In this document: piece after piece, positions 4,234 to 8,564 of the stretch | Layout: each line of letters begins with the position of its first letter | How positions within the stretch are numbered: the stretch's first letter is position 1 | Assembly: GCA_900696615.1 (NCBI GenBank) | Contig: CAADGS010000089.1 | Span: forward strand, 1 to 32,341 | Length of the DNA stretch: 32,341 nucleotides | Origin: an uncultured beta proteobacterium | GTDB taxonomy: Bacteria > Pseudomonadota > Gammaproteobacteria > Burkholderiales > Nitrosomonadaceae | Reading direction: 5' to 3' | The notes under the pieces: model-generated | What the model saw: only the letters and a program-made list of their open reading frames with translations | The model's database searches: none | Told to the model about the DNA's origin: nothing | Position numbers and translations under genes: made by a program

Positions 4234-4356
4234 ATGAAAATTTTCCAACCAGCAATAAGATTAGAATTTAATAATCAGAGTTGGCGCGCTCAACCAGAAT
4301 TTCTTGCACATAAACGCAAGGTGATAAGTACAATTACTTCGAGGGGAAGATCTTGA
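4234..4356 (+). CDS. Possible 40-aa leader ORF (MKIFQPAIRLEFNNQSWRAQPEFLAHKRKVISTITSRGRS) overlapping the acyl-AMP ligase start
   Basis: ATG at 4234, in-frame TGA at 4354-4356 overlapping the TTG start at 4353 (TTGA). Not in the supplied ORF track because of its size. Confidence 0.3.
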   Translation: MKIFQPAIRLEFNNQSWRAQPEFLAHKRKVISTITSRGRS

Positions 4357-6170
4357 GTTCGACAATAACCAAGTTGAACGCTCCGCTAACGCAAGCGTTT
4401 GATTTTCAGCCTTCAAGCGAATTACAATTTACGCCGACATTCAATACACTAACTCAGCGGTTAGCGGACTTCGATACCCTGACCGGCGCTTTAGAATATG
4501 CAGCAGAGGGAGTAACGGGGTATAACTTTTACGACGCGAAGGGAAATTTACGTTCAGTTCTGCCTTACGGTCAGCTGAGAGATAATGCTCGCGCTAAGGC
4601 CCAGCGCCTATATAGTTTTGATTTACCCCGAGGAAGCCGGGTCGCAATTATTGCTGACACATCTCCGGAATTTGTCGAATTGTTTTTTGCTTGTCGCTAT
4701 GCTGGATTGGTACCTTTTGCTATGCCGATTCCAGTTAATTTAGGTAGTCATGCGATATATGTTCAACAGTTAAGAGGCATGCTTGATAGCGGACAAGCAA
4801 GTATTGCGCTAGCAAATATCGACTATGTTAACTTTCTGGAGGAAGCTGTAGAAGGAGTAAAAAGTATTCAATGGGCTGGAACGCCAAGTAAATTAGCCGA
4901 ATTGCCCGCGATTGATTTGGAATTTCAATCTAATCATCCCGATGAGACTGCTTATTTGCAATTTACCTCTGGCAGTACGCGTGCCCCTAGAGGGGTAGTT
5001 ATTACTGAGCGGGCCTTAATGTGCAATTTGCAAGGTATTGTTCGTAATGGCCTGGAAATAAGACCGGGTGATCGCTCTGCATCATGGTTACCTTTTTACC
5101 ATGATATGGGGTTGGTTGGTTTGGTCTTGGCGCCAATGGTTACACAACTTTCGGTTGATTATTTGGCAACCAGAGACTTTGCAATTCGGCCTTTGCAATG
5201 GCTTAAGTTAATCAGTCGCAACCGTTGTACCGTAGCATTTAGTCAACCATTTGGCCTTAAGCTTTGTACTTTGCGTGCAAGAGAAACTGATCTTAAGGAA
5301 TTAGATCTTAGTTGTTGGCGTGCTGCAGGTATTGGTGCAGAAATGATTCGGCCAGAAACTTTGAGAAACTTTGCGGAAAAATTCGCATCAGCAGGTTTCG
5401 ATGAGAGCGCTTTTTTACCATGCTATGGTCTTGCAGAATCAACATTAGCTGTTACCTTTTCGAGAATTGGTATGGGATGTAAAAGTATTCAAGTAGATAG
5501 TAAGACCCTGATAGATAAAAAAATGGCTGCTAGATTGCAAGCCGATGGCCGTAAACAAAATGAATTTGTAAACTGTGGACGTCCGTTGCCTGGTCATATT
5601 GTTAAAATTGTGAATGAAGATGGAGAACAATTATCAGAAATGATGGTTGGCAGTGTTCTAGTACATGGTGACAGTTTAATGACTGGTTACTATAACAACT
5701 CCGAAGAAACTAACAAGGCACTCAAATCAGGTAATTGGTTAGATACAGGTGATATTGGGTTTCTGTTTGGGGGCGATTTGTTTATTACTGGACGCCGGAC
5801 AGACGTTATTATTGTCAATGGTCGTAATATTCGTGCGCAGGATATCGAAGAATTAGCGGAACAACAACCTGAGGTCAGATCTCGTGAAGCTTCGGCATTT
5901 GGAGTAGATGGTGAAGATGGAGCTACAATTATTGTTTTGGTGATTGAATGTAGGCTTGCTTCTGTAATAGAACGGCAATCATTGACAACGAGGTTGCAGC
6001 AGCTTGTATATATGGCCTTTGGTGTTAATTGTGTTGTCGAATTAGTGCCACCACATACTTTACCAAGAACTTCTTCTGGAAAACTTTCACGGTTTGCAGC
6101 GAAACAAGGATATATCCAAAGGACGAATCTTGGTGGGCAGTTATCTTTTGTAGAGTCAGGCGATAGATAA
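4353..6170 (+). CDS. Fatty-acyl-AMP ligase (FAAL-like, AasR-like)
   Basis: LQFTSGSTRAPRGV P-loop, SWLPFYHDMGLVG, CYGLAESTLAVTFS, NCGRPLPGH and TSSGKLSR motifs; TTG start preceded by GAGGGG SD. Confidence 0.9.
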   Translation: MSSTITKLNAPLTQAFDFQPSSELQFTPTFNTLTQRLADFDTLTGALEYAAEGVTGYNFYDAKGNLRSVLPYGQLRDNARAKAQRLYSFDLPRGSRVAIIADTSPEFVELFFACRYAGLVPFAMPIPVNLGSHAIYVQQLRGMLDSGQASIALANIDYVNFLEEAVEGVKSIQWAGTPSKLAELPAIDLEFQSNHPDETAYLQFTSGSTRAPRGVVITERALMCNLQGIVRNGLEIRPGDRSASWLPFYHDMGLVGLVLAPMVTQLSVDYLATRDFAIRPLQWLKLISRNRCTVAFSQPFGLKLCTLRARETDLKELDLSCWRAAGIGAEMIRPETLRNFAEKFASAGFDESAFLPCYGLAESTLAVTFSRIGMGCKSIQVDSKTLIDKKMAARLQADGRKQNEFVNCGRPLPGHIVKIVNEDGEQLSEMMVGSVLVHGDSLMTGYYNNSEETNKALKSGNWLDTGDIGFLFGGDLFITGRRTDVIIVNGRNIRAQDIEELAEQQPEVRSREASAFGVDGEDGATIIVLVIECRLASVIERQSLTTRLQQLVYMAFGVNCVVELVPPHTLPRTSSGKLSRFAAKQGYIQRTNLGGQLSFVESGDR

Positions 6171-6180
6171 AAAAAAGGGT

Positions 6181-7122: not shown

Positions 7123-7377
7123 ATGACCGAGAACAATTATAATGAGATCATGAAATTACTCTGTGATCGTTTAAAGGTGGTATCGAATTCCAATATTCCA
7201 ATCACTTCCGAAACAAACATAATTAGCCAATTGTCGATTGATTCCATTAAATTACTCAACCTGATTATGGAAATTGAAGATACTTTTGATATTTCAATTC
7301 CTATCAATGCATTAGCCGATGTGCAAACTGTTCGCGAACTAGCAGATCTCGTTTATAAAATTAAGTCAGCATCATAA
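7123..7377 (+). CDS. Acyl carrier protein (dedicated, AcpR-like)
   Basis: 84 aa with phosphopantetheine attachment motif LSIDSIKLLNL (DSxxxL) and typical helical ACP pattern. Confidence 0.9.
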   Translation: MTENNYNEIMKLLCDRLKVVSNSNIPITSETNIISQLSIDSIKLLNLIMEIEDTFDISIPINALADVQTVRELADLVYKIKSAS

Positions 7378-7379
7378 TA

Positions 7380-8564
7380 ATGAATTTACTCGAAAAATTA
7401 GACGCGTCTGCTGCGGCAAGAAAAGCGCTTTTACCCGACGGTGTCGGGGCTTTTGGTATTCCAATAGAAGAGGTTTATTCGGCTACTGAAGCCCGGATTG
7501 GTGATCGGCGCGTACTTCTGCTTGGTACTAACAATTATTTAGGATTAACTTTTGCACCTGAATGCATTCGAGCAGCGCATGAAGCGATCGATAAAGAGGG
7601 TACGGGTACAACAGGGTCCCGGATGGCAAATGGAAGTTACTTTGGCCATCGCTCACTAGAAAGAGAATTTGCAGATTTTTATCAATGTGATTCTGCGATT
7701 GTCTTTACTACGGGTTATCAAGCAAATTTGGGCACCATTTCTGGTCTCGTTGGCCCGGGGGATACTGTCTTGATTGATGGTGACTCTCATGCCAGTATAT
7801 ACGACGGCTGTGTTTTAAGTGGTGCAGATATCATTCGCTTCAAACATAATGATACGGTCGATATGGAGAAACGCTTACGTCGGTTGGGTGACCGTGTTGA
7901 AACCACGCTGATAATTGCTGAAGGGATTTACAGTATGCTCGGCGATCAAGCACCTTTGGCCGATATTGTTAAATTAAAAAACGCTTATGGTTGTATTTTA
8001 CTCCTTGATGAAGCGCATTCGTTGGGCGTGCTTGGTGAAACTGGTCAGGGTCTTGTAGAAGCAACCGGATTATTGAAAGAAGTCGACTTTATTACTGGCA
8101 CCTTTAGTAAAAGCTTATGCAGTATTGGCGGTTATTGTGTAAGCAATCACCCTCAGCTTGAGCAATTACGCTATGTCAGCCATCCCTATATTTTTACAGC
8201 ATCGCCATCTCCCGCAACGATTGCTTCGACTCGGGCGGCATTGGAGTTATTGCGCAAAGGTAGTCATTTGCGCACACTATTGTGGCAAAACTGCACACAG
8301 CTTTATACACAGCTAAAGAAAGGAGGATATTTACTTGGTCCTCATCCTGGTCCGGTAATTGCTGCTATCGTTGACACACCTCGCCAGGCACTCTTACTTT
8401 GGCAGAATTTGCTTGAGCATAATATTTACGTGAATTTAATATTGCCTCCAGCTGCACCGGAAGGTAAATCACTGGTGCGATGCAGCGTAAATGCAGCCCA
8501 TACGCCAGAACAAATTAAGTATGTAGGCGATACTTTTTGTAAACTGCGTAGTTTAGTATGCTAG
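7380..8564 (+). CDS. spt: PLP-dependent alpha-oxoamine synthase, serine palmitoyltransferase-like
   Basis: GTGTTGSRMANGSYFGHRSLE, LLLDEAHSLGVLGETGQG and PLP-lysine region ITGTFSKSLCSIGG; 2 nt after the ACP stop. Confidence 0.85.
   Translation: MNLLEKLDASAAARKALLPDGVGAFGIPIEEVYSATEARIGDRRVLLLGTNNYLGLTFAPECIRAAHEAIDKEGTGTTGSRMANGSYFGHRSLEREFADFYQCDSAIVFTTGYQANLGTISGLVGPGDTVLIDGDSHASIYDGCVLSGADIIRFKHNDTVDMEKRLRRLGDRVETTLIIAEGIYSMLGDQAPLADIVKLKNAYGCILLLDEAHSLGVLGETGQGLVEATGLLKEVDFITGTFSKSLCSIGGYCVSNHPQLEQLRYVSHPYIFTASPSPATIASTRAALELLRKGSHLRTLLWQNCTQLYTQLKKGGYLLGPHPGPVIAAIVDTPRQALLLWQNLLEHNIYVNLILPPAAPEGKSLVRCSVNAAHTPEQIKYVGDTFCKLRSLVC

What the first reader, a model, noticed from the sequence alone, without database searches (positions are those of the whole stretch)
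4353..8564. Complete sphingolipid (ceramide) precursor operon: acyl-AMP ligase, epimerase/reductase, dedicated ACP, Spt-like synthase
Seen: four tightly packed co-directional genes (gaps 10, 30 and 2 nt) with clear FAAL, extended-SDR (YxxxK), ACP (DSIKLL) and alpha-oxoamine synthase (FSKSL lysine) motifs. Known: in Caulobacter a cluster of Spt, AcpR, CerR and AasR makes 3-oxosphinganine and reduced long-chain base; I recall this from the literature and have not aligned it. Inference: this organism, apparently not an alphaproteobacterium, can make an ACP-loaded sphingoid base. A bacterial ceramide synthase (bCerS, GNAT-like) is not visible in the window, so the final acylation would be encoded elsewhere or the product may be a free long-chain base or another acyl-amino-ketone.
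Basis: partly seen in the sequence, partly recalled or inferred. Interest (0 to 1): 0.8.

Follow-up and report, generated by a model that had tools for sequence, protein, structure and literature searches.

The report
Sphingolipid operon in LPS-gene-lacking Nitrosomonas
A four-gene set for making the backbone of sphingolipids is real here, was already described in the related ammonia-oxidiser Nitrosomonas eutropha, and is found throughout this genus; the genomes examined also lack the key gene for the usual outer-membrane lipid (LPS), so sphingolipids may take its place.

Summary
Observation confirmed: aasR-cerR-acpR-spt at 4353-8564. The organism is a Nitrosomonas sp. The synthase passes NCBI's curated serine palmitoyltransferase model and groups with proven SPTs, away from KBL and BioF. 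The same four genes in the same order are published for N. eutropha, Caulobacter and E. coli BL21. The operon itself is ordinary.

(1) The 'missing' ceramide synthase is in the same genome (contig C65, 49% identical to E. coli B YghO). It heads a conserved cluster (nucleotidyltransferase, LptF, LptG, CDP-alcohol transferase, fused lipid kinase/Tam41-like protein) resembling ceramide-phosphoglycerate genes, so the product should be a phosphoceramide, not a free base. (2) LpxC (lipid A) is found in 0 of 37 Nitrosomonas genomes but in 24 of 24 other families of the order; SPT and CerS show the reverse. In nearly all genomes the only LptF/LptG pair sits beside cerS and, in the window's genome, resembles the sphingolipid-cluster type.

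Lipid A gene loss in N. europaea (2010) and sphingolipid genes in N. eutropha (2022) are each published; I found no paper joining them. That sphingolipids replace LPS here is inference; no lipid was measured.

The parts
4341..4346 (+). GAGGGG, Shine-Dalgarno-like, 6 nt before the TTG start of aasR
   Evidence: sequence read directly; TTG start conserved across Nitrosomonadaceae loci
4353..6170 (+). aasR: fatty acyl-AMP ligase / specialised acyl-AcpR synthetase, 605 aa
   Evidence: NF006624 847 bits, cut-off 600; 48% to E. coli BL21 AasR; closest PDB chain 3pbk fatty acyl-adenylate ligase
6181..7092 (+). cerR: extended-SDR 3-keto-sphingoid/ceramide reductase, 303 aa; starts straight into the Rossmann motif, no signal peptide evident by eye
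   Evidence: PF01370 83 bits; 42% to E. coli BL21 Epi; weak matches to NDUFA9 chains, the relation reported for CerR in PMC11087976
7123..7377 (+). acpR: dedicated acyl carrier protein, 84 aa, DSIKLL site
   Evidence: PF00550 45 bits; 42% over 53 aa to E. coli BL21 AcpR
7380..8564 (+). spt: serine palmitoyltransferase, 394 aa, PLP Lys244
   Evidence: NF047599 567 bits, cut-off 500; 54% to E. coli BL21 Spt; tree; H159, D231, H234, K265 and R390 equivalents conserved, R378 equivalent is Leu as in E. coli Spt

Best explanation
The operon makes the sphingoid backbone of ceramide in a Nitrosomonas species. AasR adenylates a free fatty acid and loads it onto AcpR. Spt condenses acyl-AcpR with L-serine to 3-ketosphinganine. 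A GNAT-like ceramide synthase encoded elsewhere in the same genome (G000:C65:14139-15296) adds the second acyl chain, and CerR reduces the keto group; [quoted passage not shown] The cerS cluster (nucleotidyltransferase, LptF, LptG, CDP-alcohol transferase, fused lipid kinase/Tam41-like protein) then plausibly phosphorylates and activates ceramide, adds a phospho-head group of the ceramide-phosphoglycerate kind, and exports it by an Lpt route. Shown here: the genes, orthology, linkage, conservation and absence of lpxC. Inferred: every enzymatic step, substrate, product and the export route. The confidence given is for the ceramide backbone; the head group and export steps are less sure.
For: Curated SPT equivalog and FAAL matches. 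SPT tree with proven SPTs as neighbours. Orthology to the E. coli BL21 set in the same order, with activity shown in PMC9386255. Four-gene order conserved in all loci where the contig allows. bCerS found in the same genome at 49% over 371 aa. SPT orthologue in 35/37 and CerS in 36/37 Nitrosomonas genomes, none in 24 other families of the order. The cerS-nucleotidyltransferase-LptF-LptG-CDP-alcohol transferase-kinase cluster is intact in four other genomes. Kinase and Tam41-like domains by Pfam and Foldseek.
Against: No lipid or enzyme has been measured here. R378 of Sphingomonas SPT, taken from memory as a substrate-binding residue, is Leu (Val in Nitrosovibrio), so amino-acid specificity is not proven by sequence; E. 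coli Spt, which makes 3-oxo-sphinganine, also has Leu. Orthology of the head-group genes to Caulobacter cpg genes rests on domains and position, since Caulobacter proteins were not available to align. One 91%-complete genome (G019) lacks spt, cerS and LptF/G.
Confidence: 0.9

Rival explanations
1. The synthase uses glycine or alanine rather than serine, giving an amino-ketone or 1-deoxy-type base.
For: The residue equivalent to Arg378 of Sphingomonas SPT is Leu; alpha-oxoamine synthases share a fold and chemistry.
Against: SPT equivalog match over cut-off and far above KBL, BioF and ALAS models; same Leu in E. coli B Spt, which makes 3-oxo-sphinganine (PMC9386255); cerS and kinase cluster conserved in the same genomes.
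Confidence: 0.05
2. The four genes make only a free long-chain base or 3-ketosphinganine, without ceramide.
For: No bCerS in the 32 kb window.
Against: A bCerS orthologue is in the same genome and in 36/37 genus genomes.
Confidence: 0.03
3. The operon makes ceramide, but sphingolipid is a minor, accessory lipid. Lipid A was lost for another reason (genome reduction, as Opiyo et al. 2010 read it) and the outer leaflet is filled by phospholipids, hopanoids or a surface polymer. This rivals the LPS-replacement reading only, not the ceramide pathway.
For: Published reading for N. europaea (PMC3087551); hopanoid genes hpnH/hpnB-like/hpnM lie 3 kb from the operon.
Against: Conservation of spt and cerS across the genus, and of a single LptF/LptG pair beside cerS that in the window's genome resembles the sphingolipid-cluster type, with LptD kept.
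Confidence: 0.3

Closest known systems
Nitrosomonas eutropha C91 Neut_0458-0461 (aasR-epi-acpR-spt), with aca/cerS Neut_1100 elsewhere (PMC9386255)
   Same: Same genus, same four genes, same order, cerS at a distance; SPT of the N. eutropha strains fetched (Nm57, Nm24) is 77% identical
   Different: Different species; nothing of substance seen
Caulobacter crescentus CC_1165-1162 (AasR, CerR, AcpR, Spt) with CC_1154 CerS and CC_1152-1161 CPG2 genes (PMC11324152, PMC12275187)
   Same: Same order; cerS next to LptF2/LptG2 and a nucleotidyltransferase; kinase and CDP-alcohol transferase nearby
   Different: Caulobacter has lpxC (control) and its LptF2/G2 are second copies; in Nitrosomonas the kinase and Tam41-like parts are one protein and there is as a rule one LptF/G pair
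E. coli BL21 yghO / ECD_02851-02854 cluster
   Same: Same operon order, proteins 42-54% identical; LptF2/LptG2 next door
   Different: E. coli keeps LpxC and a canonical LptF/LptG pair; no kinase or CDP-alcohol genes are annotated in its cluster
Sphingomonas (outer membrane with glycosphingolipid instead of lipid A)
   Same: Sphingolipid genes without lipid A, if the inference holds
   Different: Sphingomonas makes chemically proven glycosphingolipids (cited in PMC10964400); here the head group is predicted phosphate-based and unmeasured

Membership tests
Rhodobacterial AcpR/AasR-dependent SPT operon | SPT of the serine-palmitoyltransferase clade, not KBL/BioF | tested here: met
   NF047599 over cut-off; tree with 100/99 support for the SPT side against KBL and BioF (long branches among the outgroups)
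Rhodobacterial AcpR/AasR-dependent SPT operon | acpR immediately before spt, aasR nearby | tested here: met
Rhodobacterial AcpR/AasR-dependent SPT operon | AasR acylates AcpR selectively; Spt prefers acyl-AcpR | not testable with these tools
   needs enzyme assays; reported in PMC9386255 (selective AasR for Caulobacter; Spt preference for Caulobacter, E. coli B and S. wittichii)
Bacterial ceramide pathway (CerS and CerR) | bCerS orthologue in the genome | tested here: met
   G000:C65:14139-15296, 49% to YghO over 371 aa
Bacterial ceramide pathway (CerS and CerR) | CerR, NDUFA9-like extended SDR | tested here: met
   PF01370, 42% to E. coli Epi, weak NDUFA9 matches
Ceramide phosphoglycerate (Cpg) pathway | Ceramide kinase (CpgB), CDP-DAG-synthase-like CpgC, CDP-alcohol transferase CpgA, cytidylyltransferase CpgD | tested here: inconclusive
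   Domains present near cerS: DAGK_cat, Tam41-like fold (model mean pLDDT 58), CDP-OH_P_transf, one NTP_transf_3; no alignment to Caulobacter proteins was possible, and only one of the two further nucleotidyltransferases (CC_1152, CC_1153) has a candidate on C65
LPS-lacking, sphingolipid-covered outer membrane (Sphingomonas type) | No lipid A synthesis genes | tested here: inconclusive
   LpxC in 0/41 and 0/37 genus genomes and 0/12 genomes of named records; LpxB in 0/41 over cut-off; LpxC in 24/24 other families of the order. The two genes searched are absent; LpxA, D, H, K, L and WaaA were not searched, and PMC3087551 reports lpxK in N. europaea
LPS-lacking, sphingolipid-covered outer membrane (Sphingomonas type) | Sphingolipid present in the outer leaflet | not testable with these tools
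   needs lipid chemistry

The most novel reading that the evidence does not exclude
Across Nitrosomonas (and Nitrosovibrio), lipid A has been lost and phosphosphingolipids take its place in the outer leaflet, exported by an Lpt machine whose only inner-membrane permease pair (LptF/LptG) is of the sphingolipid-cluster type; ceramide is activated by a fused ceramide-kinase/Tam41-type CDP-synthase. These would be betaproteobacteria with a Sphingomonas-like outer membrane.
Probability: 0.6. Interest if true: 0.75.

Novelty: new member of a known kind. Interest (0 to 1): 0.5.

Why it matters
The operon alone extends a published case from N. eutropha to the genus. The larger point is that two facts in separate papers fit together: Nitrosomonas lacks lipid A genes (2010, read as genome reduction) and has sphingolipid genes (2022, 2024). 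Joined with the linked, usually single LptF/LptG pair, they give a directly testable answer to what covers the outer membrane of these ammonia oxidisers, and a natural system for asking what Lpt transports when there is no LPS. It also bears on the open question of why lipid A is dispensable in some Gram-negative bacteria.

Tried and rejected
KBL/BioF/CqsA assignment of the synthase: rejected by model scores and tree. Missing bCerS: rejected. Mobile origin: no near match of the operon in 72,556 plasmid records, and the operon is conserved across the genus. RNA elements: no Rfam match in the window. Promoters and terminators: no more consensus matches than in shuffles. The 8695-9348 ORF as a fifth operon gene: rejected as core, because it follows spt only in a subset of the loci and has no family match. 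E. coli cluster genes other than cerS and LptF/G were not found on C65 or in the window. Zik et al. 2022 is not held in the library. Caulobacter proteins were not fetched for direct alignment. One search fetched a G019 stretch that was not used.

Full report
WHAT IS THERE. The first starts with TTG behind a GAGGGG stretch. In every related locus where that end was matched, the TTG is at the same place. NCBI's curated models name the first protein a fatty acyl-AMP ligase (847 bits, cut-off 600) and the fourth a serine palmitoyltransferase (567 bits, cut-off 500); the third carries PP-binding and the second Epimerase. The second protein also weakly matches NDUFA9 chains, the relation reported for CerR in PMC11087976.

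WHICH ORGANISM. The SPT is 76-98% identical to those of the named Nitrosomonadaceae loci (mostly Nitrosomonas, two Nitrosovibrio). The window is contig C89 of a 2.58 Mb, 159-contig genome, 92.5% complete.

IS THE SYNTHASE AN SPT? In a tree, it sits with Nitrosomonadaceae, E. coli BL21 and Sphingomonas SPTs, apart from E. coli KBL, E. coli BioF and the genome's own BioF. The outgroup branches are long, so only the coarse split should be trusted. Catalytic positions equivalent to H159, D231, H234, K265 and R390 of Sphingomonas SPT are kept. The R378 position is Leu, as in E. coli Spt. E. coli B Spt was shown to make 3-oxo-sphinganine with its AcpR and AasR (PMC9386255), so the Leu does not exclude serine. 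The importance of these residues is from memory of the Sphingomonas SPT literature.

KNOWN OR NOT. The order aasR-epi-acpR-spt is published for C. crescentus, E. coli BL21 and N. eutropha C91 (Neut_0458-0461), with aca/cerS elsewhere in N. eutropha (PMC9386255). PMC11324152 adds that N. eutropha has good orthologues of at least 13 genes of the Caulobacter sphingolipid region, in three places. I aligned the window proteins to the BL21 set: 48, 42, 42 (53 aa only) and 54% identity, in the same order. All four genes are together in 67 of 68 named loci; in L069 the contig ends before aasR, and in L109 it ends inside spt.

THE REST OF THE PATHWAY. E. coli YghO (the ceramide synthase orthologue) finds one protein in the same genome, at C65:14139-15296, 49% identical over 371 aa. 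It is followed by a MobA-like nucleotidyltransferase, LptF, LptG, a TrkA-TrkH-like pair, a CDP-alcohol transferase and a protein of about 664-708 aa with a DAGK domain (TrkH named by eye). In four other genomes the same six genes are contiguous without the Trk pair. Foldseek of an AlphaFold model of the kinase protein (homologue P0121, 93% identical; mean pLDDT 58, C-terminal half partly 70-90) puts Tam41 CDP-DAG synthases first among enzymes, then bacterial diacylglycerol kinases and sphingosine kinase 1. This fits a fusion of CpgB (ceramide kinase) with CpgC, which PMC11324152 describes as CDP-DAG-synthase-like. It is a modest-confidence model, and Caulobacter proteins were not available to align, so the Cpg assignment is an inference.

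LIPID A. LpxC is found in none of 41 Nitrosomonas genomes, and LpxB in none over cut-off; both searches ring in E. coli and Caulobacter. In a 61-genome set, LpxC is in 24 of 24 genomes from other families of the order and in 0 of 37 Nitrosomonas. In the same set a true SPT orthologue (E below 1e-200) is in 35 of 37 Nitrosomonas and 0 of 24 others, and CerS in 36 of 37 and 0 of 24. The genomes behind 12 named loci, among them N. eutropha, N. communis, N. oligotropha, N. ureae, N. nitrosa, N. marina, N. mobilis, N. aestuarii and two Nitrosovibrio, also lack LpxC (completeness not told). Absence in 37 related genomes is probably one evolutionary event, not 37. Opiyo et al. 2010 had found only lpxK in N. 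europaea and quote only lpxA for Nitrosospira multiformis, and read this as genome reduction (PMC3087551).

LPT. LptD is present in 12 of 13 genomes. Most genomes have exactly one LptF/LptG pair, including two single-contig genomes, G006 and G029; one single-contig genome, G020, has a third, lone family member. In 33 of 35 genomes with both, the pair lies on the cerS contig with starts within 2.1 kb; in the two exceptions, G015 and G036, the hits lie on different contigs of draft assemblies. The window genome's LptF and LptG are closer to the E. coli B sphingolipid-cluster pair (164 and 182 bits) than to its canonical LPS pair (63 and 132 bits); other genomes' pairs were not compared in this way. 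This is the expected picture if Lpt carries sphingolipid here. It does not prove it.

LIMITS. Nothing chemical was measured. The paper library is open-access only, so a paper joining these facts may exist. G019 (91% complete) lacks spt, cerS, LptF/G and lpxC, so either the assembly is missing them or the pathway can be lost. CerR is periplasmic in Caulobacter (PMC11087976); the window's CerR begins straight at the Rossmann fold with no signal peptide that I can see, so its compartment is open.

VERDICT. The operon is a genuine, ordinary member of a published kind. Its genomic setting makes a stronger and testable case: sphingolipids in place of LPS in Nitrosomonas.

Noticed in passing
window 11557-14541: Hopanoid genes hpnH (over cut-off), hpnB-like glycosyltransferase (368 bits, just under 379) and hpnM/MlaC (over cut-off) lie 3 kb after the operon. 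The linkage is kept in many of the loci, and in the N. marina/N. aestuarii-type loci the block lies upstream on the other strand.
   Followed up: partly
window 8695-9348: 217-aa ORF after spt with a hydrophobic N-terminus and no Pfam or NCBIfam match; conserved only in a subset of the loci.
   Followed up: partly
window 18579-24373: CusA/CzcA-type heavy-metal RND efflux set (RND, HlyD-like adaptor, outer-membrane factor), with a CueO-like multicopper oxidase at 29518-31131.
   Followed up: no
window 25540-27633: Di-heme cytochrome c peroxidase (NF040606, 607 bits) overlapping a lipase-like ORF at 24602-25561.
   Followed up: no
window 9460-10653 (-): Flavoprotein of the 'N-terminal to SelD' family TIGR03169 standing alone, with no SelD part.
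   Followed up: no
L110 4543-13026 (G000:C65): Next to cerS on the other strand: a cluster with two related glycine-rich proteins, an amidase/peptidoglycan-binding protein and a divergent 375-aa oxoamine-synthase-like enzyme. Function unknown.
   Followed up: partly
L132 4899-6922 (G000:C65:18398-20421): TrkA and TrkH-like genes lie inside the cerS cluster in this genome but not in the four other genomes examined.
   Followed up: partly
L069, L091: Nitrosomonas-like operons in contigs titled 'Bacteroidetes bacterium' and 'Moraxellaceae bacterium': probably mislabelled or contaminated MAGs.
   Followed up: no
G026:C18:1049-2191: A second, 36%-identical CerS paralogue in one Nitrosomonas genome.
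   Followed up: no
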